From Marchantia polymorpha subsp. ruderalis (Eukaryota > Streptophyta > Marchantiopsida > Marchantiales > Marchantiaceae): a stretch of 64,000 nt of DNA. The notes beneath the pieces were generated by a model. It was not told the DNA's origin. It searched no databases and saw nothing but the letters and a program-made list of their open reading frames with translations. The DNA lies in the NCBI GenBank assembly GCA_037833965.1, contig AP031353.1:17300501-17364500 (forward strand), given 5' to 3'. Within the stretch, counting starts at the first letter, position 1, and the number at the start of each line of letters is the position of its first letter. The position numbers were made by a program, and so were the translations under genes. Positions 3,001 through 64,000 of the stretch are shown here, in pieces.

Positions 3001-3626
3001 GTGTAGAAATATGCATATGAATGTACAAAGAGGAAATTGAAGGGATATTTTTTGTTCTCACAATGCAATTGTATTGCTATATTGATGAAGCGATATATTT
3101 TGGATTGGAGAGTTGAAGTGGTGAAGAAGAAAGTGGATTGTATATAAAAAGACTTATTTTATGTTTTAACTCAATGATTTCATTTAGCTTAATACTAATG
3201 TATTATCTTTCTGTCACATATGTGAGATTGTGAATTGATATCCTAATCTAAATTTTTACAAATTTTACATAACGGATATTGTTTTATCAGCTCGAAATGA
3301 AAGTGTCAAAAATTTATCATAAGATAGAGTTATTGTTAAAAAAAAATTTAATCTATGACGAAGAATTTACAAATAAATATTGAGTACACATCTATGAAGT
3401 TTTTTGAAAACTTCTCATAATTTTTTGCTCATTGATACTTCGTTTTATTTTAATAATTTTTTTTTATGAAAAACTTGATATTAAAAAATTTTGAATTTTT
3501 CTATCATCTTTTAAAATATGATAATTTTTCTTATGTGAATACTTGAATTATAATTCAAATTTATCAACTATAAATTATAAATTTATGAGTATATCTTTTA
3601 AACTATCAATTGATATTTGAAAACAT
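1..3626. other. spacer without a supported gene
   Basis: No reading frame here shows a recognisable domain, and all open stretches are under about 95 codons. A perfect hairpin lies at 101-136 and a telomere-like stretch (two partial CCTAAA units ending CCCTAAA) near 1,947-1,966. From about 3,040 to 3,600 the sequence becomes very AT-rich with A and T runs. I see no RNA gene. Confidence 0.6.
101..136. repeat. perfect 16-bp inverted repeat (hairpin)
   Basis: TCTATATGTCCTTTCA (101-116) is followed by the loop TACT (117-120) and the exact reverse complement (121-136). No flanking gene explains it. It could be the tip of a foldback element or a chance cruciform. Confidence 0.7.
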
Positions 3627-3890
3627 TGTAACGTCAAAACACGCAAGTGATAGTATACACTCAAGACAAGATCTAACGTGGTTCATCCCCTTGAAAAGGC
3701 TACGTCCACCGAAAACACGTTCCACTTTACTTCAATTTTTTTACACAAGACTTACTTCATATACAGGCCAATGTCGATTATTTATGTCATGCGAATACAT
3801 ATCGTCATACACTCTAAATCGTTGACATGCTACTCACATACACATACGCACACATATAAGACGCGAGAGCGTACACATTTAAATGTACTA
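3627..3890 (-). repeat. LTR-like end, probable 3' LTR of the decayed gypsy element
   Basis: On the minus strand this ends in ..GACGTTACA (CA end at 3,627). It shares its last ~190 bases, with changes, with the LTR at 26,916-27,150: a GGTGGA..GTA block, GAACCACGTTAGATCTTGTCT and the ACTATCACTTGC block. A G-rich run at about 3,895-3,905 (minus strand GGGGGGG) could be the polypurine tract between the PHD-finger remnant and this LTR. The expected TG start is not clear, so the right edge is approximate. Confidence 0.45.
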
Positions 3891-4070
3891 GAACTCCCCC
3901 CCTAGTTGGCGGTCAGCTCCCTCAGACTCCAGGTAGCCCTATCTACAACTACATGTTATACACCTTCATGAGTACGCAAAACAGTAGACCGAGTGCTATG
4001 TCGCCCCATCGTTAGTCGCCTATCTGTAATTCATAACATGTGAAGATCAAGTCATCTACCCCTCCGAAGT

Positions 4071-4206
4071 ACATTGAGGACAAACCCATCGTCTAGCCGG
4101 AACAACATCGATAAGTGGAGTCATGCATGACATTTACCATCTCCTAGAACATCTATCACACACTAAACATACAAGCCGCCTGAACTACTGACCCACATAA
4201 CATGCA
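4071..4206 (-). pseudogene. PHD finger at the C-terminal end of the retrotransposon pol
   Basis: On the minus strand from 4,206 the residues run C-M-L-C-G, then after a frame change C-D-R-C, then W-(stop)-M-S-C, and finally W-V-C-P-Q-C ending at 4,071. This is the C4HC3 spacing of a PHD zinc finger, with the expected WVCPxC tail. The histidine usually found after the W is replaced by a TAA stop and there is a one-base frameshift, so the domain is broken. PHD fingers bind histone H3 tails; at the end of an integrase this would be an alternative to the chromodomain of chromoviruses for choosing target chromatin. That role is inference. Confidence 0.65.
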
Positions 4207-4209
4207 CCT

Positions 4210-4714
4210 CAAGCCAGTACGTACTATTGTTAAGCTTGGATCCATAGTTCCATCCACGTTTGGGAGGTGACATGGCACACAATTGCGCACATGATACTTC
4301 CAAACAACACTGTCACGACCCTCCGACATGAGAGCTCCAGAAGCTAGCACCTCTCGCACTCGTAAGATTGTGCGTCCCGCCGTCACATCTAATGTTGTCG
4401 GTGCAGTCTCCTGTAGATAGACGTAGTCTTCCACATGGAACCTACGAAGGTCTGTCTATCGATGATCTATAACCTCCTCCCCGAATGGTTATGTACCGCA
4501 ACGTATCTCTATGCTGAGCAATCGCAAGATTCTCAAATGCTGCAGGCATAAATCTCCGAAAGAGCTCTGCACGTTGAGAACACACTCTCACCCACATGTT
4601 CAAGTCATCAAGGTTCATCGTATATGGTCTATACTTGACGACTGAACCGATATTCCATGGCCAATTATGATAACTACATATTCCAGTCTCTAAGATGTCC
4701 TTTCTGTAGGCCAT
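4210..4714 (-). pseudogene. integrase C-terminal region
   Basis: Two open pieces in different frames (4,714-4,442 and 4,434-4,207) carry the part that follows the catalytic core. The first has the helical stretch ELFRRFMPAAFENLAIAQHR and the second begins DYVYLQ and continues with LRVREVL and EGRD, which fits the small beta-barrel (GPY/F-like) module of Ty3/gypsy integrases. It leads directly into the PHD finger. The frame changes between 4,441 and 4,434, and further stops lie between the core and this region. Confidence 0.6.
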
Positions 4715-5095
4715 ACTTGCGCAATGACTTCTTCACCGTCTTTACAACACGTACAGCCAAACCATCCGCCTCCGGATGATCTCAAGACGTGGTTCGATGA
4801 TCAATTAGTGCCTTGTCACACAAGACCTGAAACTCTGTACCCTTATCGGTCAACACCTCAACATGTGCATCAAGGTAACTAAGCATCTTGTCAAGAAAGT
4901 CATACGCTGTTACCTCAGTCGCCTTGTCAAATAATGCCACCAACTCAATCCACTTGGAGAAATGCTCTACCATGACCAACACATACCGATGATGTCCTAT
5001 AGTCAACGGTAATGGTTCAGCGATTCCAAACTTCAAAAGTATTTCAACCCAAGGGGGTTGAGTTATCGTTGGATAATGAATGGGTAATGGATGTA
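4690..5095 (-). pseudogene. integrase catalytic core, right half of the split gene
   Basis: The minus strand shows VMVEHFSKW (position of the first acidic residue, Glu instead of the usual Asp) and VLTDKGTEF (second Asp). A stop follows at DHRTTS-stop-DHPE, where CGA appears to have become TGA. The stretch that should carry the third catalytic residue reads DGLAVR, with Val where Ty3/gypsy integrases have Glu in the GLAER-type motif. Two catalytic positions are therefore altered or doubtful. At 5,095 the frame runs into the inserted E element and continues at 15,927. Confidence 0.8.
5091..5095. repeat. target-site duplication ATGTA, left copy (outer E)
   Basis: ATGTA directly precedes TGTAATAACCC, the left end of the outer E element. 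The same five bases occur at 15,922-15,926 directly after its other end (..GGTACCACA). Removing the element and one ATGTA restores a continuous integrase frame apart from one TAG, which confirms a true insertion site. Confidence 0.9.
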
Positions 5096-5339
5096 TGTAA
5101 TAACCCACTAAAGGCTAAAACTGCAATATAGTGGTAGAAAGGTCGAACCCACAGGGACAGAGGAACACACAGGGTACAAAGTGTCACGTTTTAACAGACT
5201 ATTGAGGAGTTTGAATTCTCAGGCGACTGTCACTCCCAGAAATACTGCAAGTGTCCACTCGGAGCGCACTCGGAGGTCGCACAGTGCAGCGTAACACACA
5301 CACACACACACACACCTGAAACTACAGAAACACAACCCA

Positions 5340-5344
5340 GAGAT
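5340..5344. repeat. target-site duplication GAGAT, left copy (inner E)
   Basis: GAGAT lies directly before the inner E start TGTGGTACC and is repeated at 10,747-10,751 directly after its end TTATTACA. Joining the flanks at one GAGAT rebuilds the outer E sequence (..CAACCCAGAGATCCGTTAGG..), as checked against the inner copy at about 10,500-10,520. Confidence 0.9.
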
Positions 5345-5779
5345 TGTGGTACCCCACTTTTGGCAATTTTGAGGAAATTAAAACATTTTTGGAAAACTGT
5401 ACCCTGGCAGCATTGTAAATAGCCTTCGGTACATCAAAACAGAGTGAATCCGGAAGATCGCGGGGATTCTCGAGGGATCTTGTAGAATCTGGGATTTGGG
5501 GTGCCGCAGTAAGGACAGGCACCACCCTCCCTGCGAGCTCCGCAGTTAGGATCTCTACAGCGCAAGGCGCAAAATCCGCCTTCGAAGGTTGCGTCCGCGG
5601 CTGTAGGGAAACCCCCCGTAATTAGGTAAACCCTCGGGCGCCTTGACCAAGTTAGGGTCCCGTTGGAAAGAGCTCGACGCGCTGATTCTAACGAGCCCAA
5701 GAACGCTTGGAACGGACGAGGACTTAGGGAGTTATCGCTACTGGAAGAAACGGAGGCGGTCGCCTACGGCGGAAGGAGT

Positions 5780-6320
5780 TCGCCACCGGCGCGAATTCCG
5801 CCTACGCGGAAGGCGGAATCAAGTTTTGTCCTATGCGCGGACGAAGGCGTTCGCCTGTGCACAGGCGAAGTAGGGTTAGGGAAGGCGCGAAGTCCGCCTA
5901 CGCACAGGCGTTCGCCTGCGCACAGGCACTTCGGCGTCGGCGGAAAATCCGCCTTGGGCCCTAGAAATGCGCCTTGTGAGGTAGAAAGTGTACGGCGCCT
6001 TCCGCGCCAGCGCAGCGCCGCGTACGTCGGAAGAGCCGCCAGAGTAATCCAACAGGTACGGACCGTGCGGACGGCACGGGTGGATGCGCTCTTGGACGGA
6101 CGGAGTTGCGGCGGCGGAAGCGCCAACGGAGAGACAAGGAACGGACAGATTGAACGGAGACGGCTGACCACGGTCAACGCCTTCCGCGCCAGCGCAGCGC
6201 CGCGGACGAAATTCGCCTGCGCACAGGCGAACGCCTGTGCACAGGAGGATGGAGTTCCGCACCGGCGGAGGATCCACCGAGGCTTCCGCCTGCGCACAGG
6301 CAGGAGTTGAATTTTTGTCC
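5780..6320 (+). repeat. palindrome cluster in the 5' region of the inner E
   Basis: This GC-rich stretch has repeated short palindromes built on GCCTGTGCACAGGC, GCCTGCGCACAGGC and GCCTACGCACAGGC, plus hairpins of the type GTCGCCTACGGCGG and CGCCTTCGGCGC. A perfect 20-bp palindrome lies at 5,850-5,869 (TTCGCCTGTGCACAGGCGAA). The matching cluster in the outer E is at about 14,950-15,500, and in the third E at about 63,830-64,000. No single long ORF uses this region convincingly. Confidence 0.75.
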
Positions 6321-6588
6321 GACATGCGGACACACGCGTCAAGGCAGAAGGAGATTGGCCGAGGGGCGGTACGAACAAGTGTACCGCGCAAGGCGGAAAA
6401 CTCGCCTTCGGCGCTACGCCCCCATGTCCGGAGGGTGACACGCTCGCGGAGTTCAAATCCGCCAATTCGAGCGTGAGAGTTTAATCGACGACGGCGGAGC
6501 GTGAAGCCGCGCGTGAGAGCGAAGACCGTTCCAGCGTACAGCCGGCGCGGCCATCAAGTGAGACGTTCTTCACGACCAAGAGCCGACC

Positions 6589-9500
6589 ATGACCTTCGAC
6601 CGGGCGGCGGAGAGCGTCCCATTCTTGAATTCGCGATTCCAATCTCTTGTGCGCGCTGCGCGCATCCATCTGCTGGCTGCGGACCATTCTCGGCGTCGTC
6701 GCAGAGGAGATTTCTTGTTGATTGAGGGAGAAGTGAGTGCGCGTGATTTGGAATTGAGAGCGATTAGAGTTTGCCGAGAGAGAAAGAAACGCGGACAGTG
6801 CGGAAGTAGAATGAGCGGGCGAGCGAACCCCAGGAACGCAATGACGAGACCGAGCAGATTGCGGATGGTGCCACTTCGCCTGCCGCAGAACGGGCTGCGC
6901 GCTTTCGAGGAGCGCTTAATAGCAAGAAAGCTCGATTTCTTGCTATGGGGATGGAATTACATCTGCGCGAATATGGTGCGCGAGTGGCTAGAGCCACAGG
7001 GACCACCCTCGCGCGGATTGCGTCCGCATGTTGACCGGTGGACAGTCCAAGATTGGGCGCAGGCGTTGGGAAGATGTGCTGGCATGCCAGGGCATCTCCT
7101 TTTCGACAGTGAGAGCATCAAGGTGACCAAGCAAGAAGAGGCGCAATTTGTGGAGCTGTTCAAGACCGGGAGGTCAACCAAGAATGGGTACAGGACCCGT
7201 GATTACAAGGATCGATTTCGCCGGACTTTGTCCGCGGCGCTGATGCAATTACTGCAGCCGCACCGCGCCTGCTACATCACATTGTGGCAGGTCTCTTTTG
7301 TGGAGTGCGTCATCGAGGGAACTCCAATTCACTGGGCGAGCATCCTGCACAGGGTGATGCGACAGCACGCGTTTGAGGAGAAGGGGGGAACTCTAAACCA
7401 TCTTTCTCCTTTCCTCATCAATTTTTATCGACAGCGGAATTGTTTGACAGCGGCGGAGCTTGAACATTTTCCGCCATTGTCCATCGACCATCCCGGGAAG
7501 TATGTGCGGGAGAACGAGGTCGATACTGACGCAGAGGAGTCCCCGACTTCTACCCCATCAAGACGGAGAGACGAAGGGAGACACACCCCTGCAGCGCGAG
7601 TGCCGCGGAAGCGGCGATGGAGGGAAGAGTCCGAAGAGGAGCAGCATCAAGAACTCTCTGCTCCCATTCGACCGCGGCCGCTGTGCGAGCCATACAGCCG
7701 GCCGAAGCAGAAGGCACGCAGACTAGTGTTGCCAGCTGACAGTGCAGACACGGCGACGATTGCGACGGAGATAGGAAGTGCGTCGCCAGAGAGGCGAGAG
7801 GAAGCGCGGACGACCGCAGGAGCGACGGGCCACGCTGCAACCTCGTCGGGAGAGAGGCCGCCTACGGGCCAAGGGCCTCCGGAGTTACCACGTGCGATGC
7901 GGACAGACGTTCCGTTTGCGCACAGGCGAACCTCCGCGGACGGACGAGCCTCCGCGGACCGGCGAACACAAGTGGACGTGGATCTAGGCTTACGCGTGGG
8001 AAGGAGCAGTCCGCCTGTGCACAGGCGCTCACCTGTGCACAAGTCGCATGTGCACAGGTCACCTGTGCACAGAACACCTCCGCACGTGCCGCCTGTGCAC
8101 AGGCAAGAATCACCCCCGTTCCAACGTAGGAAGGGGAAGGAGCCGGCGGAAGAACCGCCTACGAGACACCGGCCCTCGGGGCCAGACCCTCCGGCGCATC
8201 ACGCGCCGCAATTTGCGCCTTCGGCGCCAGGGCCTTCGAGCCGAGGGGATACGAGCAGAGAGCGTGCCGAGGCCGCACCATCGGCGGGAAGTCCGCCGAT
8301 AGATGCGCCTTCGGCGGTAGGGCCTATAGGCCAAGGAACATCGGGCGTGCGGCCCCCGGCCATGTCGCCTTCGGCGGTAGATGTCCGCGGCGCTACGCCT
8401 GCGGCGGACAAGGCGCCGGCAAATGCGCCTGCGCACGGGCCGGGCACAGCCCCCACGGACCAATCGAGGGAGCAGCAGACGGAGGAGCGGAGTGACTGTC
8501 CGCGGGACGACATCTCGATGCGCGATGCGCAATCCAACCCCGCGCAGCCACCCTCCGCTCGATCGCCTTCGGCGACGGACGACGGCGACAGAGAGAATGA
8601 GGTGGGCAATCAACCAGCGAGCGACGGGGATGCCGCTCGGATACATTCGCCTTCCGCCTTAGACATTTTGGCGACGAGCAGCGAGGCCGCAGCCGTGCCT
8701 TCGCAGGCAGCACACGTCGAGGACGTGCAGCCCCACTCGGGGCAGTCGCCAACGCAATCAATGGCGACTGAAATTCTCCACTCGGATGATGACGACGGGG
8801 GCTCCACGGAAGAAATGTCAGGAGCAGAAGACACCGAGGAGGAGGAGGAGGAAATTGTTGGAGCGCCGGCGGCGGCGCTCTCTGAGCAGGTGATTCCGTT
8901 GCTGCGGTACTTGGATCGCAAGGTCGATAAATACGCCGACCCACTCCAGCCGGGATCTTACATCGAGTTAGTGCGCAGGAGGACTCGCACTAAAGTCCAC
9001 ACCAGCAAGCTATTAGCTAGAGTGGACCAGGAGTTGAGGGACTTGAAGGAGAAGCATGAGTGCTTGTGGGGACAGTACAAGCTTAATCAGAAGTTCTACA
9101 AGCACTCCGAGAAGATGAAGGATGAGAAACTGGGCGAGCTCACCAAGGAGCAGGTGAAGGTCAAGGAAGCACTCAACTCTGAGCAGGCCCAGAATCGGAT
9201 TTTGTCAGAGGAGCTCGTGCGACAGACGCGGTTGTTGGAACAATGTCAGCTCGCACGGCAGGCGGATGAAGAATTAATCCGCAGTTTGCAGTCAGAGTGT
9301 GGCGAATTGAGAGCGCAACGTGCTGAAGCCGAATCGCAATTAGTGACGATTGAAGAGGATCGCAGGAAGGAGGCGGATCGCACGAAGGTGGAGACGGCGA
9401 GGCGAGTCGCCCACTGTCTCAAGGGCTACGCCCACTGGGAAGTGAAGGCGCAGGAGAAACTCACACTGCGTGAGTTTGAATTGCGCGCAGCCGGGTTGTT

Positions 9501-9741
9501 GTCAGGCGACAGTAGGAGTCGGCGGAAGGTAGCGAAGAAGCTCGAGGCCTTTCTGTCGAAGGCACATGATACCATGTCCGCCCTCGAGGGGGAGGTGTCC
9601 GCGGCGTTGCAGCGGTTGGGACTGCGCAGTCGAGCGGAAGAGTGGCAGGGTAGAGAGTTAGTGCGCGGCAGTCGGCCGCGCAGGAGACGTAGTACAGGTT
9701 CCGCGGAGTGTAGTGTAGCGTGGTTCCGTGCAGGCGTGTAG
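6589..9741 (+). CDS. E element protein (gag-like or plant-transposon-type, coiled coil), inner copy
   Basis: A single uninterrupted ORF of 1,050 codons starts at ATG 6,589. Residues about 90-310 form the only globular-looking part, rich in Trp and aromatic residues (motifs WNYICANMVREWLE, RWTVQDWAQALGRC, LSPFLINFYR); it reminds me of the plant-mobile or putative-transposon domains of bryophyte repeat proteins, a resemblance from memory. Residues about 320-740 are low complexity (Pro, Ser, Arg, Ala), including PVHRR-type repeats at about 474-505 encoded by GTGCAC palindromes. An acidic run (DDDD, EEEEEE) lies near 730-755, followed by a long coiled coil (about 800-1,015) and a basic tail. No zinc knuckle, protease, RT or DDE motif is seen. 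A structural, gag-like role is a guess. The intact frame in both copies implies recent activity or selection. Confidence 0.8.
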   Translation: MTFDRAAESVPFLNSRFQSLVRAARIHLLAADHSRRRRRGDFLLIEGEVSARDLELRAIRVCRERKKRGQCGSRMSGRANPRNAMTRPSRLRMVPLRLPQNGLRAFEERLIARKLDFLLWGWNYICANMVREWLEPQGPPSRGLRPHVDRWTVQDWAQALGRCAGMPGHLLFDSESIKVTKQEEAQFVELFKTGRSTKNGYRTRDYKDRFRRTLSAALMQLLQPHRACYITLWQVSFVECVIEGTPIHWASILHRVMRQHAFEEKGGTLNHLSPFLINFYRQRNCLTAAELEHFPPLSIDHPGKYVRENEVDTDAEESPTSTPSRRRDEGRHTPAARVPRKRRWREESEEEQHQELSAPIRPRPLCEPYSRPKQKARRLVLPADSADTATIATEIGSASPERREEARTTAGATGHAATSSGERPPTGQGPPELPRAMRTDVPFAHRRTSADGRASADRRTQVDVDLGLRVGRSSPPVHRRSPVHKSHVHRSPVHRTPPHVPPVHRQESPPFQRRKGKEPAEEPPTRHRPSGPDPPAHHAPQFAPSAPGPSSRGDTSRERAEAAPSAGSPPIDAPSAVGPIGQGTSGVRPPAMSPSAVDVRGATPAADKAPANAPAHGPGTAPTDQSREQQTEERSDCPRDDISMRDAQSNPAQPPSARSPSATDDGDRENEVGNQPASDGDAARIHSPSALDILATSSEAAAVPSQAAHVEDVQPHSGQSPTQSMATEILHSDDDDGGSTEEMSGAEDTEEEEEEIVGAPAAALSEQVIPLLRYLDRKVDKYADPLQPGSYIELVRRRTRTKVHTSKLLARVDQELRDLKEKHECLWGQYKLNQKFYKHSEKMKDEKLGELTKEQVKVKEALNSEQAQNRILSEELVRQTRLLEQCQLARQADEELIRSLQSECGELRAQRAEAESQLVTIEEDRRKEADRTKVETARRVAHCLKGYAHWEVKAQEKLTLREFELRAAGLLSGDSRSRRKVAKKLEAFLSKAHDTMSALEGEVSAALQRLGLRSRAEEWQGRELVRGSRPRRRRSTGSAECSVAWFRAGV
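7905..8105 (+). repeat. in-frame palindromic repeats inside the E ORF (inner copy)
   Basis: The coding sequence contains back-to-back TGTGCACA-centred palindromes (for example 8,012-8,027 and 8,091-8,104), read as PVHRR, PVHK and PVHRQ, preceded by TCCGCGGACGG units read as SADGR. The outer copy (13,140-13,340) has one more SADGR unit and fewer PVH units, so the array changes length in steps that keep the frame. Confidence 0.8.
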
Positions 9742-10746
9742 CGTAGTGCAGTGTAGTGCTAGGTAGGACTTAGAAGGTATAAAATAGTTCCAGGCGTTTT
9801 GCCTGGGGTTCTTTCCCATCAGAAGTGCAGATCAGGAACCCATTTCCTTTGCGTGTTTGTGTCCTTGAGTTCTGTCACCACGCACGAGGAGTTACAACTT
9901 AGCGTTCCGCATTTTGTAGCTGAAGGCCTTCGGCCGAATGTTCAGAGCTAGTACAGTGGTTAGAGACTTGAGTAGTTCGGATCTGCACCTGCGGGTGACT
10001 GCCGATGCTCAGAGCCAGTGACTAGTTAGATACTTGAACAGTTTCGCCCCTACACCTTCGAGTGTTTCTTTCTGATTGTACTCCTTGGGATTTTTCCCCT
10101 GAATGCCAAAGTGAAGTTTTGCTACTTCGTGTAAGCCTTGGTTGTAAATTCAGGTTACGCTGCAGCAGGTGCCTTGAGGGTAACCCCTGTAGTATTTCTG
10201 GGAATGACAAGTGCCTGAGAATTCAAACTCTTCAATAGACTGTTGTTGTGTTACTGGAATGTTTCACAGTGAGTCCTTTAGTGCGGACCTGTGTTCTCTG
10301 CGCGTTTTGTGAGTTGAGAGTGTTGTTCACCGCGTATGAGTGACTTCGATCCGAAGTAGGCAGTCCAAACCGGGTTTCCTACACTAGCAGCAAGCTAGTG
10401 GAAGCGTTGTAAAAGCCGGAGTTGGAAGTCACTACCCGCAGCTTTGCCGAGTGTGCTCGTGAGAGACTTTCCCCCTGAAATCTTGAAGTAGAGGTCCTAA
10501 CGGATCTCTGGGTTGTGTTTCTGTAGTTTCAGGTGTGTGTGTGTGTGTGTACGCTGCACTGTGCGACCTCCGAGTGCGCTCCGAGTGGACACTTGCAGTA
10601 TTTCTGGGAGTGACAGTCGCCTGAGAATTCAAACTCATCAATAGTCTGTTAAACGTGACACTTTGTACCCTGTGTGTTCCTCTGTCCCTGTGGGTTCGAC
10701 CTTTCTACCACTATATTGCAGTTTTAGCCTTTAGTGGGTTATTACA
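9742..10746 (+). other. 3' region of the inner E with TATA-like motif and internal duplication
   Basis: After the ORF stop there is GTATAAAATAG (about 9,777-9,787), then a small hairpin GGCGTTTTGCC. Two segments resemble each other: about 10,185-10,260 and about 10,595-10,665, both containing TTTCTGGGA.TGACA and CCTGAGAATTCAAACTC followed by TCAATAG.CTGTT. A (GT)n run lies at about 10,530-10,550. The last bases, GTGGGTTATTACA, form the 3' terminal repeat. The TATA motif downstream of the only ORF is odd and could mark a promoter reading toward the 3' end. Confidence 0.55.
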
Positions 10747-10751
10747 GAGAT
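10747..10751. repeat. target-site duplication GAGAT, right copy (inner E)
   Basis: This matches 5,340-5,344 and directly follows the terminal ATTACA of the inner E. Confidence 0.9.
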
Positions 10752-11515
10752 CCGTTAGGACCTCTACTTCAAGATTTCAGGGGGGAAAAGTCTCTCGCGA
10801 GCACACTCAGCGAAGCTGCGGGTAGTGACTTCCAACTCCGGCTTTTACAACACTTCCACTAGCTTGCTGCTAGTGTAGGAAACCCGGTTTGGACTGCCTA
10901 CTTCGGATCGAAGTCACTCATACGCGGTGAACAACACTCTCAACTCACAAAACGCGCAGAGAACACAGGTCCGCACTAAAGGACTCACTGTGAAACATTC
11001 CAGTAACACAACAACAGTCTATTGAAGAGTTTGAATTCTCAGGCACTTGTCATTCCCAGAAATACTACAGGGGTTACCCTCAAGGCACCTGCTGCAGCGT
11101 AACCTGAATTTACAACCAAGGCTTACACGAAGTAGCAAAACTTCACTTTGGCATTCAGGGGAAAAATCCCAAGGAGTACAATCAGAAAGAAACACTCGAA
11201 GGTGTAGGGGCGAAACTGTTCAAGTATCTAACTAGTCACTGGCTCTGAGCATCGGCAGTCACCCGCAGGTGCAGATCCGAACTACTCAAGTCTCTAACCA
11301 ATGGACTAGCTCTGAACATTCGGCCGAAGGCCTTCAGCTACAAAATGCGGAACGCTAAGTTGTAACTCCTCGTGCGTGGTGACAGAACTCAAGGACACAA
11401 ACACGCAAAGGAAATGGGTTCCTGATCTATACTTCTGATGGGAAAGAACCCCAGGCAAAACGCCTGGAACTATTTTATACCTTCTAAGTCCTACCTAGCA
11501 CTATACTGCACTACG

Positions 11516-14500
11516 CTACACGCCTGCACGGAACCACGCTACACTACACTCCGCGGAACCTGTACTACGTCTCCTGCGCGGCCGACTGCCGCGCACTAAC
11601 TCCCTACCCTGCCAATCTTCTGCTCGACTGCGCAGTCCCAAACGCTGCAACGCCGCGGACACCTCCACTTCGAGGGCGGACATGGTATCCTGTGCCTTCG
11701 ACAGAAAGGCATCGAGTTTCTTTGCTACCTTCCGCCGACTCCTACTGTCGCCTGACAACAACCCAGCTGCGCGCAATTCAAACTCACGCAGTGTGAGTTT
11801 CTCCTGCGCCTTCACTTCCCAGTGGGCGTAGCCCTTGAGACAGTGGGCGACTCGCCTCGCCGTCTCCACCTTCGTGCGATCCGCCTCCTTCCTGCGATCC
11901 TCTTCAATTATCACTAATTGCGATTCGGCTTCAGCACGTTGCGCTCTCAATTCGCCACACTCTGACTGTAACCTGCGGATTAACTCTTCATCCGCCTGCC
12001 GTGCGAGCTGACATTGTTCCAACAACCGCGTCTGTCGCACGAGCTCCTCTGACAAAATCCGATTCTGGGCCTGCTCAGAATTGAGTGCTTCCTTGACCTT
12101 CACCTGCTCCTTGGTGAGCTCGTCCAGTTTCTCATCCTTCATCTTCTCGGAGTGCTTGTAGAATTTCTGATTAAGCTTATACTGACCCCACAAGCATGCA
12201 TGCTTCTCCTTTAATTCCCTCAACTCCTGGTCCACTCTAGCTAATAGCTTGCTGGTGTGGACTTTAGTGCGAGTCCGCCTGCGCACTAACTCGATGTAAG
12301 ATCCCGGCTGGAGTGGGTCGGCGTATTTATCGACCTTGCGATCCAAGTACCTCAGAAACGGAATCACCTGCTCAGAGAGCGCCGCCGCCGGCGCTCCAAC
12401 AATTTCCTCCTCCTCCTCCTCGGTGTCTTCTGCTCCTGACATTTCTTCCGTGGAGCCTCCGTCGTCATCATCCGAGTGGAGAATTTCAGTCGCCATTGAT
12501 TGCGTCGGCGACTGCCCCGAGTGGGGCTGCACGTCGTCGACGTGTGCTGCCTGCGAAGGCACGGCTGCAGCCTCGCTGCTCGTCGCCAAAATGTCTAAGG
12601 CGGAAGGCGAATGTACCCGTGCGGCATCCCCGTCGCTCGCTTGTTGGTTGTCTACCGCGTCCTCTCTGCCGCCGTCGCCCGCCGCCGAAGGCGATCGAGC
12701 GGAGGGTGGCTGCGCGGGGTTTGATTGCGCATCGCGCATCGAAATTTCATCCCGCGGACAGTCACTCCGCTCCACCGTCTGTTGCTGCTCCCTTGATCGG
12801 TCCGTGGGGGCTGTGCCCGGCCCGTGCGCAGGCGCAATTGCCGGCGCCTTGTCCGCCGCAGGCGTAGCGCCGCGGACATCTATCGCCAAAGGCGACATGG
12901 CCGGGGGCCGCTCGCCCGATGTACCTTGGCCTATAGGCCCTACCGCCGAAGGCGCATCTATCGGCGGACTTCCCGCCGATGGTGCGGCCTCCGCACGCTC
13001 CCTGCTCGTATCTCCTCGGCTCGAAGGCCCTGGCGCCGAAGGCGCAAATTGCGGCGCGTGGTGCGCCGGAGGGTCTGGCCCCGAGGGCCGGTGTCTCGTA
13101 GGCGGTTCTTCCGCCGGCTCCTTCCCCTTCCTACGTTGGAACGGGGGTGATTCTTGCCTGTGCACAGGCGGCACGTGTTGAGGTGTCCTGTGCACAGGCG
13201 ACCTGTGCACAGGCGAGCGCCTGTGCACAGGCGGACTGCTCCTTCCCACGCGTAAGCCTAGATCCACGTCCACTTGTGATCGCCTGTCCGCGGAGGCTCG
13301 TCCGTCCGCGGAGGCTCGTCCGTCCGCGGAGGCTCGTCTGTGCGCAAACGGAACATCTGTCCGCATCGCCCGTGGTAACTCCGGAGGCCCTTGGCCCGTA
13401 GGCGGCCTCTCTCCCGTCGAGGTTGCAGCGTGGCCCGTTGCTCCTGCGGTCGTCCGCGCTTCCTCATGCCTCTCTGGCGACGCACTCCCTATCTCCGTCG
13501 CAATTGTCGCCGTGTCCGCACTGTCGGCTGGTAACACCAGTCTGCGTGCCTTCTGCTTCGGCCGGCTGTATGGCTCGCACAGCGGCCGCGGTCGAATGGG
13601 AGCAGAGGGTTCTTGATGCTGCTCCTCTTCAGACTCTTCCCTCCATCGCCGCTTCCGCGGCACTCGTGCTGCAGGAGTGTGTCTCCCTTCGTCCCTCCGC
13701 CTTGATGGGGTAGAAGTTGGTGACTCCTCTGCATAAGTGTCGACCTCATTCTCCCGCACATACTTTCCGGGATGGTCGATGGACAATGGCGGAAAATGTT
13801 CAAGCTCCGCCGCTGTCAAACAATTCCGCTGTCGATAAAAATTGATGAGGAAAGGAGAAAGATGGTTTAGAGTTCCCCCCTTCTCCTCAAACGCGTGCTG
13901 TCGCATCACCCTGTGCAGGATGCTCGCCCAGTGAATTGGAGTTCTCTCGATGACGCACTCCACAAAAGAGACCTGCCACAATGTGATGTAGCAGGCGCGG
14001 TGCGGCTGCAGTAATTGCATCAGCGCCGCGGACAAAGTCCGGCGAAATCGATCCTTGTAATCACGGGTCCTGTACCCATTCTTGGTAGACCTCCCGGTCT
14101 TGAACAGCTCCACAAATTGCGCCTCTTCCTGCTTGGTCACCTTGATGCTCTCACTGTCGAAAAGGAGATGCCCTGGCATGCCAGCACATCTTCCCAACGC
14201 CTGCGCCCAATCTTGGACTGTCCACCGATCAACATGCGGACGCAATCCGCGCGAGGGTGGTCCCTGTGGCTCTAGCCACTCGCGCACCATATTCGCACAG
14301 ATGTAGTTCCATCCCCATAGCAAGAAATCGAGCTTTCTTGCTATTAAGCGCTCCTCGAAAGCGCGCAGCCCGTTCTGTGGTAGGCGAAGTGGCACCATCC
14401 GCAATCTGCTTGGTCTCGTCATTGCGTTCCTGGGGTTCGCTCGCCCGCTCATTCTACTTCCGCACTGCCCGCGCTTCTTTCTCTCTCGGCAAACTCTAAT

Positions 14501-14674
14501 CGCCCTCAATTCCAAATCACGCGCATTCACTTCTCCCTCAATCAACAAGAAATCTCCTGTGCGACGACGTCGAGAATGTTCCGCAGCCAGCAGATGGATG
14601 CGCGCAGCGCGCACAAGAGATTGGAATCGCGAATTCAAGAATGGGACGTTCTCCGCCGCCCGGTCGAAGGTCAT
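11516..14674 (-). CDS. E element protein, outer copy
   Basis: Uninterrupted ORF of 1,052 codons starting at ATG 14,674, nearly identical to the 6,589-9,741 protein with scattered substitutions and small in-frame length differences in the low-complexity middle (an extra SADGR unit, one fewer PVH unit, an added Gln). The Trp-rich N-terminal domain, acidic run, coiled coil and basic tail are all kept. The frame stays open although the element itself is interrupted downstream of the stop by the inner E. The insertion lies in the 3' region, so the coding part was spared but the normal 3' end was removed by 5.4 kb. Confidence 0.8.
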   Translation of the reverse strand: MTFDRAAENVPFLNSRFQSLVRAARIHLLAAEHSRRRRTGDFLLIEGEVNARDLELRAIRVCRERKKRGQCGSRMSGRANPRNAMTRPSRLRMVPLRLPQNGLRAFEERLIARKLDFLLWGWNYICANMVREWLEPQGPPSRGLRPHVDRWTVQDWAQALGRCAGMPGHLLFDSESIKVTKQEEAQFVELFKTGRSTKNGYRTRDYKDRFRRTLSAALMQLLQPHRACYITLWQVSFVECVIERTPIHWASILHRVMRQHAFEEKGGTLNHLSPFLINFYRQRNCLTAAELEHFPPLSIDHPGKYVRENEVDTYAEESPTSTPSRRRDEGRHTPAARVPRKRRWREESEEEQHQEPSAPIRPRPLCEPYSRPKQKARRLVLPADSADTATIATEIGSASPERHEEARTTAGATGHAATSTGERPPTGQGPPELPRAMRTDVPFAHRRASADGRASADGRASADRRSQVDVDLGLRVGRSSPPVHRRSPVHRSPVHRTPQHVPPVHRQESPPFQRRKGKEPAEEPPTRHRPSGPDPPAHHAPQFAPSAPGPSSRGDTSRERAEAAPSAGSPPIDAPSAVGPIGQGTSGERPPAMSPLAIDVRGATPAADKAPAIAPAHGPGTAPTDRSREQQQTVERSDCPRDEISMRDAQSNPAQPPSARSPSAAGDGGREDAVDNQQASDGDAARVHSPSALDILATSSEAAAVPSQAAHVDDVQPHSGQSPTQSMATEILHSDDDDGGSTEEMSGAEDTEEEEEEIVGAPAAALSEQVIPFLRYLDRKVDKYADPLQPGSYIELVRRRTRTKVHTSKLLARVDQELRELKEKHACLWGQYKLNQKFYKHSEKMKDEKLDELTKEQVKVKEALNSEQAQNRILSEELVRQTRLLEQCQLARQADEELIRRLQSECGELRAQRAEAESQLVIIEEDRRKEADRTKVETARRVAHCLKGYAHWEVKAQEKLTLREFELRAAGLLSGDSRSRRKVAKKLDAFLSKAQDTMSALEVEVSAALQRLGLRSRAEDWQGRELVRGSRPRRRRSTGSAECSVAWFRAGV
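13140..13340 (-). repeat. in-frame palindromic repeats inside the outer E ORF
   Basis: The same GTGCAC-centred palindromes and TCCGCGGACGG units as in the inner copy, with a different unit count (three SADGR-type units here against two full ones there). Confidence 0.75.
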
Positions 14675-15921
14675 GGTCGGCTCTTGCTCGTGAAGAACGT
14701 CTCACTTGATGGCCGCGCCGGCTGTACGCTGGAACGGTCTTCGCTCTCACGCGCGGCTTCACGCTCCGCCGTCGTCGATTAAACTCTCACGCTCGAATTG
14801 GCGGATTTGAACTCCGCGAGCGTATTACCCCGCGGACATGCGGGCGTAGCGCCGAAGGCGAGTTTTCCGCCTTGCGCGGTACACTTGTTCGTACCGCCCC
14901 TCGGCCAATCCCCCTCTGCCTTGACGCGTGTGTCCGCATGTCGGACAAAAGTTCAACTCCTGCCTGTGCGCAGGCAAGAGCCTCGGCGGATGCTCCGCCG
15001 GCGCGGAACTTGAACATCCTCCTGTGCATAGGCGTCCGCCTGTGCGCAGGCGAATTCCGTGCGCGGCGTCGCGCTGGCGCGGAAGGCGTTGACCGTGGTC
15101 AGCCGTCTCCGTCCAGTCTGTCCGTCCCTTGTCTCTTCGTCGGCGCTTCCGCCGCCGCAACTCCGTCCGTCCAAGAGCGCATCCACCCGTCCCGTCCGCA
15201 TAGTCCGTACCGATTTGATTACTCTGGCGGCTCTTCCGCCGTACGTGGCGCTGCGCTGGCTCGGAAGGCGCCGTACACTTTCTACCTCACAAGGCGCATT
15301 TCTAGGGCCCAAGGCGGATTTTCCGCCGACGCCGAAGCGCTTGTGCACAGGCGAGCGCCTGTGCGTAGGCGGACTTCGCGCCTCGCCTAACCCTACTTCG
15401 CCTGTGCACAGGCGAACGCCTTCGTCCGCGCATAGGACAAAACTTGATTCCCCCTTCCGCGTAGGCGGAATTCGCGCCGGTGGCGAACTCATTCCGCCGT
15501 AGGCGACCGCCTCCGTTTCTTCCAATAGTGATAACTCCCTAAGTCCTCATCCGTTCCAAGCGTTCTTGGGCTCGTTGGAATCAGTGCGTTGAGCTCTTTC
15601 CAACGGGACCCTAACTTGGTCAAGGCGCCCGAGGGTTGACCTAATTATGGAGGATTTCCCTACCGCCGCGGACGCAACCTCCGAATGCGGGTTTTGCGCC
15701 TTGCGTCGTAGGGGTCCTAACTGCAGAGCTCGCAGGGAGGGTGGTGCCTGTCCTTACTGCTGCACCCCAAATCCCAGATTCTACAAGATCCCTCGAGAAT
15801 CCCCGCGATCTTCCGGATTCACTCCGTTTTGATGTACCGAAGGCTATTTACAATGCTGCCAGGGTACAGTTTTCCAAAAATGTTTTAATTTCCTCAAAAT
15901 TGCCAAAAGTGGGGTACCACA

Positions 15922-15926
15922 ATGTA
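15922..15926. repeat. target-site duplication ATGTA, right copy (outer E)
   Basis: Matches 5,091-5,095 and directly follows ..GGTACCACA, the 5' end of the outer E read on the minus strand. Confidence 0.9.
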
Positions 15927-16185
15927 ACTATGGTGTCCGTGCATTAAACGATGTCTTCACCCGATCATAAATCATGCAACATGATACTAATCGTTGTACT
16001 TGAGTATGCATACCACGCCACCAATACTGATCAAGGAGTAAGCTGTATGTACGCTTCACTCAAAAATGTCCCAAATCCTCATGAGTATGCATACCACGCC
16101 ACCAATACTGATCAAGGAGTAAGCTGTATGTACGCTTCACTCCAAAATGTCCCAAATCCTCATGAGCATGTTGCACGATGAGTGC
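15927..16185 (-). pseudogene. integrase zinc-binding (HHCC) region, left half of the split gene
   Basis: The minus strand encodes a His-containing stretch (HEDLGHFGVKR, then YWWRGMH) followed by a C-C-x-x-Y-D-R-V segment, the usual N-terminal zinc-binding module of Ty3/gypsy integrases; the second Cys position appears changed. The stretch from the first His to just before the Cys pair is present twice as an 81-bp in-frame tandem copy, and the more C-terminal copy has a stop. The frame then runs through SFNARTP-stop-LH to the insertion point and resumes at 5,095. Confidence 0.75.
16002..16163. repeat. 81-bp tandem duplication (two copies)
   Basis: Two nearly identical 81-bp units start at 16,002 and 16,083 (GAGTATGCATACCACGCC...). 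81 bp is 27 codons, so the integrase frame is kept. The copies differ at very few positions. Confidence 0.9.
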
Positions 16186-18030: not shown

Positions 18031-18170
18031 TGGTTGCTATGCAACCTCTTCCAAAGAATCGATACGGCTCTACGTACCCTCTTTTAGACCAACCTCCACG
18101 CGAAAAACTCATCTAACTACATGAATTGGACTGCAACTCTACCAAGCCCTCTCGTCGCGAATCAAAAACT

Positions 18171-19521
18171 CTAAGGGTGACAATAATGTCGCTTGTCGCC
18201 CCTAGCCATTGTCTCTACCAACCCGATAGACAATGGGCTAAATAATGATGTAGTAATCATCAAATATGAGCGCATACGTCGTTGTTCAGCCAAATCCAGG
18301 CTCACAATCGAAGTAAGACAGTTCAAATCCATAGCTTGATCCATAAATTGCTGACGTGAAGCCTCTGAAACTGACAGAGTCTGGATTGTGCCGGTAAAAA
18401 AATCCCATGGCACGCTCGTGCTCATGTGCGTTGGGTTCCATCAAACGGTGCATACAGGTATCCCATAGCAGCCTAGGACTACCAACCCTATAAGCATGTG
18501 ATGCGGGAAAACTCACAAACGTGGATAACGCCATCCGAGGTTGTCCCACTTGATTCATCATCGCCATAGGTGACTGATCACCAACCCTCACCAACTATGA
18601 ACTTCGCCCAACATCTAGAATGTTGTACACTGTGAGAGCATGATCGCATGACACACAGTCATATGCTTACCTCAAGATCTTCCTTGGCAACATATTTGTC
18701 CATCACAAACGTGATCGATGTGTCCATGAGTCAACTCTTGCTGCATCGAGCAAAACAGCTGGTCCAATCCACGACCGTACCTAATGTACACTCGCCATCA
18801 ACTGTGTCTGAGTGTCATCCAACAATGGTACATTCTCTACGATGTACGTTAGAGGACTTGCCTGATATACCTGGAGATGACATAACACACGTAACATCTC
18901 CCAAAACATACGAGATCTAGGATCGTGCAGCCCTGCTCCATGACATGCACGTGTGTGATCCTAGCATGACCACCCTGCTATCATCAGCTCAATGTGGCAA
19001 ACCCGATCGAGGTCTAGCGCCTCCAAGAATGAAAGATCTTAAGTCAAGGTCTTCTCATATCCTCAAACAGAAGATCGTGGCAACAAGAAAGTATAACTCT
19101 GCATCAATTGTGGAACATGTTGTGTGAAAACTCGATGTGTAGTCTCATCATTCTCAACATACAAGTATTTGCTTACAAGAATACCTTATTGCAACACTAC
19201 AGCCAAACCTGTGTTGATCCCACCAAAAAGATCCAACACACCCTCTACGCAATACCCCCATGCAATAGTTGTAGTGACCAATGACAATAGCACGCGAGTA
19301 TCACAACAAGGCTGACAATCTTGAGATGTTTCTATCTCCTCATGTAAAGAAGCCTCACTCCAAGCTTTCTTCACCAACCTATCAGCCTCTTGGTGCATCT
19401 CATGGCAAGAACGCCAAAGTTGAACATTTATGGAAGAGTGCACTTTCGCCGCAATGCTCACAATCTGCTCCACAACTTCATAGGCTAGAGTGTTGTCGGC
19501 TGACATGTTGCCCTCTTGCAA
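18171..19521 (-). pseudogene. cytosine-C5 DNA methyltransferase-like domain (Dnmt3-like order) inside the retrotransposon pol
   Basis: Between protease and reverse transcriptase the minus strand encodes, in canonical unpermuted order: motif I DLFGGINTG (Asp at 19,231-19,233), motif II YLYVENDE, motif IV IAGWSC-stop (Cys codon 18,964-18,966, stop 18,961-18,963), motif VI YIVENVP (ENV at 18,829-18,837), motif VIII THRSRL-stop-WTN (about 18,694-18,726), and a C-terminal part with HERAMGFFTG and SEASRQQFMDQAMDLN. That end resembles the ERxxGF..R.LLG stretch of Dnmt3 enzymes. About eight in-frame stops and a frameshift at the A-run 18,396-18,402 inactivate it. The catalytic Cys codon survives, but the preceding Pro is Ser and the following Gln is a stop. 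DRM-type plant enzymes have permuted motifs, so this is not a copy of one. It could have methylated element or host DNA when intact. Confidence 0.85.
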
Positions 19522-19995
19522 GTTGTTGGATCACGCAAGCACTCCGCTAAATCCTGCAACAAATGCCAATATCGTAGGAGAAGATCCAAGCGGTCGAGCT
19601 CTAGAAACGAATCTCACAGCTAGCTCGCTCATACGTCCATACCTTGACTACCAACTAGGGCAATAGGCTGCTGTCTCTTTCCAATAGTCCATCTGAAAAT
19701 CCATCGGATACAAGACAGCTACTCCAACAAGCACATCATACGATTCTGCTCACGTCATCACAGCGCGAACTCCACGCTGTGAACTATCATGCGCGTCATC
19801 ATGCCTCAACTGCACTGATACGCTCTCCTTGGTAATGAAATATGACCTATCACTAGTACCTCCAAGTGATGTTTGGATCTTGAATGTACAACGCTCCAAC
19901 TCGGATCTCCGAACTCCTAAAGTGATGCAAGCTGCTTTGCTCAACATCAAGGGCAGTGCACCAGAGTTAAGCAAAACTCTGGTTGTGACATACAC
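19522..19995 (-). pseudogene. aspartic protease and following linker
   Basis: An open stretch (19,995-19,750) has LLNSGALP at the place of the D-T/S-G-A active site, with Asn replacing Asp (AAC for GAC). Downstream it shows LGVRRSEL and QTSLGG, and across a stop YDVLVGVAVLYP, the usual second hydrophobic strand region of retropepsins. The Asp to Asn change alone would abolish catalysis. The linker to the methyltransferase (19,749-19,522) has two further stops. Confidence 0.75.
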
Positions 19996-20597
19996 CTATC
20001 ATGTAGAACTGCTAAGCAAAACAAACCACTCCAGTTGTCTACTAGACACACAACAGGTACAATCCTCTCGCGATCAATGGCTGGCCGGGCTAGTAATAAC
20101 TCCATCTTTGCCGCAGCCGTCAGCCAAGTCGTCTCATCCTTTAGTGTAGGCGTTGAGGGTTGCTTTACAGCAGTATCCTTGCGTATCTTGGCACTTGTAG
20201 CAATTACCCTCTCACGTTCACACAATGTGGCTGCTACACAAAATACACAAGCCACATCAATCTCGGAGTCCATCAGCTCCATGGCTGAAAACAATGGAGA
20301 TTTCATCACCAAAGTAGCCATCCGCATTGTTACACTAGATGATGTCTCCGCGCCCACAACATGTGATGTAGATGACTCAGTCTGCAGTTAATGATCACTG
20401 TGTGGTATAGCAATCATGGATGAAGTACTGCCCACCTCTAACAACTGGAATGACTGGGGAAGTCTAGGTTGTCTTCCACCCTTAGCTTTCTTGGGGTTTA
20501 ACTCTACGGTCGCACCACGTGGCTCTGAAGCACAAGCAACACCTCTCGTCACTACAATGCTAGACAACGTTAATATTCCATCCTCAGGCAATGAACA
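19996..20597 (-). pseudogene. possible gag C-terminal or gag-protease linker remnant
   Basis: Open minus-strand stretches at 20,357-19,996 and 20,600-20,388 precede the protease in the right place for gag. A CVFCVAATLC segment is Cys-rich but does not match a CCHC zinc knuckle. I cannot recognise a capsid domain, so this is named from position only. Confidence 0.35.
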
Positions 20598-22269: not shown

Positions 22270-22415
22270 AAGCGGTAACCCTAAGATTGACATCTAAATA
22301 TATTAAGAAACAAAACTACATGACATTTAACTACATGACATTTAATGTAGATGATCCTCCTAGCTTAATATAGGTAGGATCCGAGATTAGTCCTTAACTA
22401 GAGTTAATTTCAACA
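22270..22415 (-). repeat. LTR 5' end next to a polypurine tract
   Basis: On the minus strand TGTTGAAATTAACTCTAGTT starts at 22,415 and is preceded by the purine run TTAAGGGGGAGAT (22,428-22,416), the usual arrangement of a polypurine tract before a 3' LTR. Its first ~50 bases match the LTR start at 27,150 (TGTTGAGGTTAACTCTAGTT). The rest diverges, and the far end is not defined. Confidence 0.55.
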
Positions 22416-22694
22416 ATCTCCCCCTTAACTCATGTTAAGGAAACATTAACCTCTGTAACCTACATTATTACTCCGCGAGAAGATGTAGACAAAAACCTAA
22501 CACAATGTTCAATTTTTACAAAAGAGTTAATTAGAACTAAATCGTAGTCATAGCAAGATAGAGTTATAACATTAAGAGGTAACTAAAAACCTTATGACTT
22601 ATAGTCATCCGTGATTGTTCCTCACTTTAGTCCAGAACTCACTCGCACCGTCATCAGCACCAGCAATTAAGCATTGCCCGCGACTTACATCGTC

Positions 22695-26915: not shown

Positions 26916-27150
26916 TGTAACGTCAAAACATGCAAGTGATAGTAAACACTTGAGACAAGATCTAACGTGGTTCACCCCTTCGAAGTAGATACATCCACCG
27001 AGAACATGTTGCACTTGACTTTAGTTTTCCTACACAAGACTTACTTCATGTATAGGCAGAAGCTGAGTATTTAACCCAAGTGTAGACGACCATCCTAGCT
27101 ATATTTAGCTAGTACCCGAGGTTAGTCCTTAACTAGAGTTAACCTCAACA
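26916..27150 (-). repeat. LTR with primer-binding-like site
   Basis: On the minus strand it starts TGTTGAGGTTAACTCTAG at 27,150 and ends GACGTTACA at 26,916, about 235 bp with TG..CA ends. The next bases on the minus strand, GTTCGTATCAAAGCAAGG (26,915 down), resemble the initiator-Met tRNA complement TGGTATCAGAGC with three to four changes. The family also occurs at 3,627-3,890, 22,270-22,415 and about 41,600-41,842. Confidence 0.6.
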
Positions 27151-27298
27151 AACATCACATATTTTGATAATCAAAAATTGAATACAATTAAGATGATGAA
27201 CAATAAAATAAAATCAATGAATATCATGATATCTAAGTGAAATCAAATAAAAATACTATTTGGTGTTTTCAATTCAGGTTTAATGTTTAAAGATGTTT

Positions 27299-48110: not shown

Positions 48111-48443
48111 TATTTTAATTTAATGGATTTCATAAATTATAACAATGATACCATTAACATGTTCAAGAAATGAATATAGTATCTAGCTTGACTGTATCTT
48201 TTGAAGGTATGTATATATATAATTTAAACATCCAAAAAATTTTAAAATATATCAATTAGTTATAAATTAATTAAATAATATTAAAAAATTTACATTATTA
48301 AAAAAACAAGATTGACCATATTCATGTGATATTAACAACTTTAACATAATATTCATATTGCAATCTAGATAAATTTTTATCCACATTATTCAATATTGTT
48401 TGAATTAGAATTTCAAAAATCACGTTACATTGTTGAGTATAAA
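48111..48443. other. AT-rich 3' flank of gene A
   Basis: Very AT-rich sequence directly downstream of the gene A stop on the minus strand, partly matching the flank of gene B (for example CACATTATCCAATATTGTTTGAATTAGAAT at 56,884). It should hold the 3' untranslated region. Confidence 0.5.
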
Positions 48444-56384: not shown

Positions 56385-56947
56385 TTTTATATATATAACT
56401 ATTCGTTCGTTAAATTATATGATATTATATTTATTATTTTATGTAATGATTTAATATTCAACAAAAATAATTTATAAATATGATATATTATAAAATTTAT
56501 ATTTTTTTAAATAATTATTATGAATACGTGGAATTTTATTTTTTATTGAATTAATTTCTTTAAAACGGATTCATCATAAAAATATATAAATTAATAATAA
56601 TTCTATTGAATTTTATAAATTATAATTTTCATACGAGCAACATATTTAAAAAATAAATATAATATTTTTTTTATTGTGTTATTTGAACATATGAATCTTA
56701 CAATCAATTAATCATTTATGACTTAGCTAGAGGATATAAAATAATTTATTACATTGATAACAAAATGTTAACATGTTAACATTAAAATGATAACATGTTA
56801 CTAAAATAACAAAATTCATCATAATCAATATAATATTAATAATTTAAGCATGATATTCATATTATAAACTAGCTGAATTATTTTCCACATTATCCAATAT
56901 TGTTTGAATTAGAATCTCACATATCATTTTACATTGTTGAATATAAA
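56385..56947. other. AT-rich 3' flank of gene B
   Basis: Extremely AT-rich sequence with runs of A and T and no gene. The last 80 bp before 56,948 match the 3' flank of gene A. Confidence 0.6.
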
Positions 56948-63414: not shown

Positions 63415-64000
63415 TTGTGGTACCCCACTTTTGGCAATTTTGAGGAAATTAAAACATTTTTGGAAAACTGTACCCTGGCAGCATTGTAAATAGCCTTCGG
63501 TACATCAAAACAGAGTGAATCCGGAAGATCGCGGGGATTCTCGAGGGATCTTGTAGAATCTGGGAGTTGGGGTGCCGCAGTAAGCACAGGCACCACCCTC
63601 CCTGCGCGCTCTGCAGTTAGGATCTCTACGGCGCAAGGCGCAAAACCCGCCTTCGGAGGTTGCGTCCGCGGCTGTAGGGAAACCCCCGTAATTAGGTCAA
63701 CCCTCGGGCGCCTTGACCAAGTTAGGATCCCGTTGGAAAGAGCTCGACGCACTGATTCCAACGAGCCCAAGAACGCTTGGAACGGACGAGGACTTAGGGA
63801 GTTATCGCTACTGGAAGAAACGGAGGCGGTCGCCTACGGCGGAAGTAGTTCGCCACCGGCGCGAATTCCGCCTACGCGGAAGGGGGATTCAAGTTTTGTC
63901 CTATGCGCGGACGAAGGCGTTCGCCTGTGCACAGGCGAAGTAGGGTTAGGGAAGGCGCGAAGTCCGCCTACGCACAGGCGTTTGCCTGTGCACAGGCACT
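63415..64000 (+). mobile_element. third E element, cut by the window end
   Basis: Starts TGTGGTACCCCACTTTTGG exactly like the inner E, and the first 586 bp match 5,345-5,930 closely, including the palindrome cluster. The preceding AGTCT (63,410-63,414) is the predicted left copy of the target duplication. The paralogous site without insertion is at 54,734-54,738. The ORF would start about 660 bp beyond the window. Confidence 0.85.

What the first reader, a model, noticed from the sequence alone, without database searches (positions are those of the whole stretch)
18171..19521. DNA cytosine methyltransferase domain inside a Ty3/gypsy pol region
Between protease and reverse transcriptase the minus strand carries C5-methyltransferase motifs I (DLFGGINTG), IV (the Cys of the PCQ site, in WSC-stop), VI (ENV), VIII (HRSRL) and a Dnmt3-like C-terminus, in the unpermuted order. 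Cytosine methyltransferases captured by retrotransposons have, to my knowledge, been reported in a few algal and protist lineages; a bryophyte gypsy version between PR and RT would be notable. It could let the element methylate its own or target DNA.
Basis: partly seen in the sequence, partly recalled or inferred. Interest (0 to 1): 0.92.

Follow-up and report, generated by a model that had tools for sequence, protein, structure and literature searches.

The report
Self-methylating jumping gene of early plants
A broken retrotransposon in what is likely a Marchantia liverwort genome holds the remains of a DNA-methylating enzyme, and relatives in liverworts, Sphagnum moss and an unplaced metagenome contig carry this enzyme next to their particle proteins, ahead of a stop codon predicted to be leaky, which would let the element mark its own DNA.

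Summary

Intact relatives exist: Marchantia Mp_4g09160 (1278 aa, Gag-PR-MT) and a whole 9.2-kb element (L001). Capture of DNMT3 by Gypsy is in print for the alga Klebsormidium, so the kind is known. New as far as my searches show: bryophyte members (Marchantia, Riccia, Calypogeia, Sphagnum); a PHD finger after integrase; and the MT lying before an in-frame UAG that reads UAG-CAR-YYA in both DNA copies at hand (0 of 36 decay stops do). So MT is predicted to be made at Gag/protease level, RT/integrase only by readthrough. MT is conserved almost like protease in two of three comparisons. Likely role: methylating the element's own DNA (inferred, untested). A second order, RH-MT-INT, occurs in 6 of 51 proteins.

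The parts
18135..20564 (-). Remnant of ORF1: linker, protease, methyltransferase and C-tail (P0055 residues 439-1250); two frame changes
   Evidence: tblastn of Marchantia P0055 in three pieces, 61%, 67% and 58% identity; 16 in-frame stops in the three pieces
19945..19977 (-). Protease active-site region VLLNSGALPLM; relatives have LLDSGAQPLML, so the catalytic Asp is Asn here
   Evidence: translation; relatives; Pfam Asp_protease_2 in relatives below cut-off, 20.0 and 20.5 of 24.3 bits
18255..19245 (-). Broken DNMT3-like C5 methyltransferase domain (frame changes at about 18400)
   Evidence: 8 stops
19207..19233 (-). Motif I DLFGGINTG
18961..18972 (-). Motif IV, WSC-stop (catalytic Cys kept; relatives WPCQ)
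18829..18837 (-). Motif VI ENV
18706..18723 (-). Motif VIII THRSRL
18031..18039 (-). ORF1 stop with predicted readthrough context UAG-CAA-CCA, in frame with RT
   Evidence: matching ORF1 ends of Marchantia P0055 and P0060
15931..18015 (-). Remnant of ORF2: RT, RNase H, integrase zinc-binding part
   Evidence: tblastn of L001 ORF2 (P0037 residues 11-675), 48% identity, 13 stops
5343..15923 (.). Inverted-repeat insertion that splits the integrase (arms 5343-10510 and 10745-15923)
   Evidence: self blastn, 95.6% over 5194 columns
4035..5024 (-). Rest of ORF2 remnant: integrase core, C-terminal part, PHD finger
   Evidence: tblastn of P0037 residues 693-1041 in four pieces
4059..4215 (-). PHD finger remnant (GLRCMLCG ... 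RWVCPQCTSEG)
   Evidence: Pfam PHD in relatives P0022 and P0037
3896..3905 (-). Candidate polypurine tract CTAGGGGGGG, same ten bases as in L001 at 6937
   Evidence: pattern match in both; role inferred

Best explanation
The region is a decayed copy of a Ty3/gypsy retrotransposon whose intact relatives encode a DNMT3-like cytosine methyltransferase between protease and reverse transcriptase, ahead of an in-frame UAG that is predicted to be leaky, and this enzyme likely methylates the element's own DNA. Shown by calls: the domain, the order Gag-CCHC-PR-MT, UAG, RT-RH-INT-PHD in one intact element, the kept catalytic residues, the conservation of the domain, and UAG-CAR-YYA in the two DNA copies at hand. 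Inferred: the stop is read through by a small share of ribosomes, so MT is made in Gag-like amounts and packed in the particle, where it meets the new double-stranded cDNA; it methylates that DNA there or just after integration; the PHD finger at the end of integrase steers insertion to chromatin that lacks H3K4 methylation. The element would then enter quiet chromatin and arrive already marked, which lowers harm to the host and makes it look like resident DNA.
Confidence: 0.55

Rival explanations
1. The methyltransferase acts mainly on host DNA around the insertion site, or on rival elements, rather than on the element's own cDNA.
For: A PHD finger follows integrase, so the integration complex may touch nucleosomes; DNMT3-like enzymes methylate chromatin DNA (recalled).
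Against: MT is encoded with Gag and PR, not with integrase, in this clade. In the RH-MT-INT group it does sit next to integrase, which favours this rival there.
Confidence: 0.2
2. The enzyme methylates RNA (genomic RNA or the tRNA primer) rather than DNA.
For: The authors of PMC5890265 raise RNA methylation for LINE-type relatives (section 11); DNMT2 is a C5 enzyme that acts on tRNA (named so).
Against: DNMT3 ranks far above DNMT2 in the profile search, 1.4e-23 against 6.4e-7.
Confidence: 0.1
3. The UAG is an ordinary terminator and RT-INT is made some other way, for example by internal initiation or splicing; the CAR-YYA context is chance kept by descent.
For: Only two DNA copies; annotated Marchantia models join MT to RT across the stop region (P0025, P0033, P0058).
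Against: Same frame on both sides in both copies; no early Met in ORF2; the first Y differs (UCA, CCA) while the pattern holds.
Confidence: 0.2
4. A host DNMT3 gene fragment inserted by chance in this one copy.
For: The window copy alone is weak against Pfam.
Against: 45 of 51 proteins share the order; intact ORFs in several clades; a whole element.
Confidence: 0.01

Closest known systems
KnitGypsy-Dnmt3 of Klebsormidium nitens (de Mendoza et al. 2018, PMC5890265)
   Same: LTR Gypsy element with an unpermuted DNMT3-related domain in Pol, under purifying selection (section 9)
   Different: Bryophyte hosts; a stop between MT and RT; PHD finger. The paper's text does not say where in Pol the domain lies or mention a stop or PHD in the passages seen. 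No direct sequence comparison was possible
SymbioDIRS-Dnmt3 and SymbioLINE-Dnmt of Symbiodinium (PMC5890265)
   Same: Retrotransposons with a captured DNMT; DIRS versions also show two domain orders
   Different: DIRS and LINE elements, not Ty3/gypsy; tyrosine recombinase or endonuclease in place of integrase
Readthrough stops of tobacco mosaic virus and of soybean SIRE1 (PMC2194720, PMC2754532, passages)
   Same: In-frame stop; in tobacco mosaic virus followed by CAR-YYA
   Different: There it splits a replicase or, in SIRE1, precedes an envelope-like ORF (title in a reference list); here it falls between a methyltransferase and RT. Gypsy elements of rice were already named as readthrough candidates (PMC2754532)
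Cellular DNMT3 and DRM enzymes
   Same: Catalytic fold; best profile and fold matches
   Different: No ADD or PWWP domain seen beside the MT; PCQ or ECQ rather than PCN; linear order, unlike DRM

Membership tests
DNMT3 family (catalytic domain) | Motifs I, IV, VI, VIII, X in linear order | tested here: met
   window motifs and relatives
DNMT3 family (catalytic domain) | Closest to DNMT3 among C5 enzymes by profile and fold | tested here: met
   tree with DNMT3A against 12 viral-contig enzymes 100/99, long branch. No host DNMT3 of plants in the tree
DNMT3 family (catalytic domain) | PCN at motif IV | tested here: not met
   PCQ or ECQ in 9 of 11 rows; DNMT3A shows PCN. Hence 'DNMT3-like', not a filed member
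DNMT3 family (catalytic domain) | De novo 5mC activity | not testable with these tools
   needs expression
DRM | Permuted motif order | tested here: not met
   linear order
Ty3/gypsy | PR, RT, RNase H, integrase in that order | tested here: met
   L001 and window; Ty3 is the best PDB hit of ORF2, 6.7e-100
Ty3/gypsy | LTRs, primer-binding site, target-site duplication | tested here: inconclusive
   candidate polypurine tract only; LTRs not assigned
KnitGypsy-Dnmt3 | Sequence kinship with the Klebsormidium element | not tested
   its sequence did not turn up by name
Tobacco-mosaic-type readthrough | UAG followed by CAR-YYA, next ORF in frame | tested here: met
   L001 and window
Tobacco-mosaic-type readthrough | Measured readthrough | not testable with these tools
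   needs a reporter assay

The most novel reading that the evidence does not exclude
An old green-plant lineage of Ty3/gypsy elements is a self-methylating particle: a DNMT3-like enzyme, made in Gag-like amounts in front of a tobacco-mosaic-type leaky stop, writes 5mC on the element's own DNA inside the particle, while a PHD finger on integrase carries that DNA to H3K4-unmethylated chromatin. The capture predates the split of bryophytes from their algal kin, or even of streptophytes from chlorophytes, rather than being an event of the Klebsormidium lineage.
Probability: 0.3. Interest if true: 0.85.

Novelty: new variant of a known kind. Interest (0 to 1): 0.62.

Why it matters
Cytosine methylation is a main plant weapon against transposons, yet here transposons keep a methyltransferase of their own, in two of three comparisons almost as conserved as their protease. 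Finding the family in Marchantia, a tractable model liverwort, makes the open question of what such an enzyme does for a transposon directly testable. The stop-codon layout gives a clear prediction: the enzyme rides in the particle with Gag and protease. The range across bryophytes and algae suggests a family older and wider than the Klebsormidium case in print.

Tried and rejected
Whole-genome search of the window's assembly (genome search) did not complete in 11 calls (5, 7, 19, 30, 40, 55, 67, 82, 87, 92, 98: machine busy). So copy number, Ka/Ks and more junctions from the host could not be had.

Scans of viral contigs with A1, P0036 and P0037 gave no relative; with A2 they gave 21 loci at 24-40% identity, 12 of which served as outgroup. 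The one genome-contig scan gave one relative, L001, from 58 pattern matches.

LTRs of the window copy: the pair 3627-3784 / 26916-27073 (82%) might be LTR remnants, but the second copy abuts a piece shared with 22346-22416, so it is not assigned. RNA structure after the stop: not convincing. tRNA genes in L001: none. One capture or two: P0059 falls in different places in the two trees and long branches are flagged, so this is left open. CpG depletion of L001 is too mild to read as self-methylation. VIA realigned only chains that Foldseek ranked, so families absent from its list are not excluded.

Rows dropped: the first tree used 41 of the 72 proteins then held, those covering most of the domain, plus the window; the second used 18 retro MTs; A3 used 47 of 172.

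Literature: that bryophyte members are not in print rests on search listings 10, 15, 44, 45, 50, 95 and 96 and on passages of PMC12344493, PMC9516144 and PMC6453930; for the stop and the PHD finger on listings 42, 50 and 83. The library holds open-licence PMC papers only; no supplements or subscription papers were seen. PMC5890265: abstract, sections 9 and 11 and passages. PMC2194720 and PMC2754532: passages.

Full report
Observation. The minus strand of 19245-18255 carries the motifs of a C5 cytosine methyltransferase in linear order. The broken copy alone scores just under Pfam's cut-off (20.1 bits, cut-off 22) and hits DNMT3A with E 3.5e-4. A protein search found 35 homologues at E<=1e-3 among 2471 candidates, the best at 8.5e-122, so the domain is real. 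One of them, P0027, an annotated gene model of Marchantia polymorpha subsp. ruderalis, is 99% identical over 25% of the query, and its pieces match this locus nearly letter for letter. The window is therefore likely Marchantia; the assembly itself could not be queried.

Anatomy of the window copy. Marchantia P0055 (Mp_4g09160) aligns to 20564-18135, and L001 ORF2 (P0037) to 18015-15931 and again to 5024-4035. Between lies a near-perfect inverted repeat, arms 5343-10510 and 10745-15923, 95.6% alike, which split the integrase. The second piece runs through the integrase core to a PHD finger. The copy is dead: 36 in-frame stops in the eight matched pieces, 8 of them in the MT piece, frame changes between pieces, and the protease Asp replaced by Asn. 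TpG/CpA is over-represented, 1.40 in the ORF1 part against 1.11 for the window, as expected if methylated cytosines decayed. The part of ORF1 before P0055 residue 439 was not found at E<=1e-4. LTRs are unresolved.

Intact relatives. A scan of genome contigs (prokaryote assemblies) found one contig, L001, titled as a cyanobacterial assembly (isolate AVDCRST_MAG81) but holding a gypsy element and so most likely eukaryotic contamination. Its ends overlap by 127 bp, so it is read as a closed 9158-bp unit. It holds Gag, two CCHC knuckles, PR and MT in one ORF ending at 3491, then RT, RH, INT and PHD in a second ORF, 3492-6635, in the same frame; Gag and the knuckles are my reading of the translation. 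A second protein search found 37 proteins at E<=1e-3 among 7994 scored, with ORF1s of about 1250-1450 aa; a third, by profile, gave 197, of which 120 were listed. Named hosts are Marchantia polymorpha, M. paleacea, Riccia sorocarpa, Calypogeia fissa, Sphagnum troendelagicum, S. tenellum and Closterium sp. NIES-53; one label, Chrzof1, I read as the chlorophyte Chromochloris zofingiensis. Of 172 proteins held, 170 match MT and 51 of these show another retro-domain: 45 in the order (CCHC-)PR-MT(-RT), 6 in the order RH-MT-INT, counting two that begin at MT and one that ends there. P0022, among the 45, is a gene model that skips RT.

The stop between MT and RT. In L001 the junction is AAG UAG CAA UCA; in the window it is GCA UAG CAA CCA, the UAG at 18039-18037, in frame with RT. 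Both fit UAG-CAR-YYA. The six bases CAR YYA after UAG are essential for readthrough in tobacco mosaic virus (PMC2754532) and by another account direct it alone (PMC2194720). Controls: 0 of 36 other in-frame stops of the window copy fit; 6 of 1663 TAG triplets on both strands of the window fit; L001 has 2 of 190 on both strands, and on its plus strand only this one. ORF1s of separate copies end at matching places within each clade (ALSATK, NGASSSN, PPLEQVS, PPLEEVS), and the window copy reads SLEEVA before its UAG. ORF2 of L001 has no Met before residue 117. Readthrough is thus the likely route to RT and integrase, with MT made alongside Gag and PR. Limits: two homologous DNA copies only; P0059 and P0063 run from MT into RT without a stop.

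Selection. Catalytic Cys is kept in 46 of 47 aligned relatives, Glu and Asn in 47 of 47, each Arg in 45 of 47. Mean identity of MT, PR and Gag N is 0.87, 0.92 and 0.67 among six ORF1s of the L001 clade; 0.78, 0.89 and 0.76 among five of the 1430-aa clade, where MT hardly exceeds Gag; and 0.51, 0.55 and 0.34 among one member of each of three clades. Ka/Ks was not computed, for want of DNA.

PHD finger. Pfam PHD follows integrase in P0022, P0037 and P0065. PDB matches include PHF12, UHRF1, CHD4, KDM5, PHF21A, ATXR5 and AIRE fingers, many of which I recall as readers of H3 unmodified at K4, as are DNMT3 ADD domains (recalled). Targeting of insertion is inference.

Mechanism. The layout suggests that MT is packed with Gag and PR and meets the cDNA in the particle; self-methylation is the most likely job, at about 0.35 taken alone. 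Identity as a DNMT3-like domain of a gypsy family is about 0.97, the leaky stop about 0.75.

Known work. De Mendoza et al. 2018 (PMC5890265; sections 9 and 11, other passages) reported KnitGypsy-Dnmt3 and inferred an acquisition in the K. nitens lineage; their Klebsormidium MT gave no methylation in yeast, which they call inconclusive. A 2025 paper (PMC12344493, passages) says that some DNMT3s sit in retrotransposons, as reported in streptophytes and dinoflagellates. I found no report of bryophyte members, of the stop or of the PHD finger in the searches named under Tried and rejected. L001 might itself be a Klebsormidium element, as that alga lives in soil crusts (recalled); this is untested.

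Verdict. A real, broken member of a gypsy family with a DNMT3-like enzyme; a new variant of a known kind, with a testable layout.

Noticed in passing
window 5343-15923: Large inverted repeat, arms of about 5.2 kb at 95.6% identity with a short spacer, inserted in the integrase; its outer ends also match 63415-64000.
   Followed up: partly
window 11516-14701 (-): Open frame of 1061 aa inside one arm of the inverted repeat, no Pfam match at E<=0.01.
   Followed up: partly
window 48276-54272 and 56777-62469: Two blocks in direct repeat at 89-97% identity, a local duplication.
   Followed up: no
window 46093-46488 (+): Piece of another gypsy RT, 31% identical to P0037.
   Followed up: no
window 22346-22416 and 27081-27151: Shared 71-bp piece (83%) beginning like an LTR next to a purine-rich tract; may be ends of a Copia-like element.
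   Followed up: no
window 16001-16170: Tandem duplication of an 81-base unit in the integrase zinc-binding part, next to the insertion.
   Followed up: no
L001 1-9285: A whole gypsy element titled as part of a cyanobacterial metagenome assembly, a binning error.
   Followed up: yes
proteins P0065, P0068, P0069, P0070, P0071, P0122: A second domain order, MT between RNase H and integrase; in the tree with a protein labelled Chrzof1 (P0090), so perhaps chlorophyte elements.
   Followed up: partly
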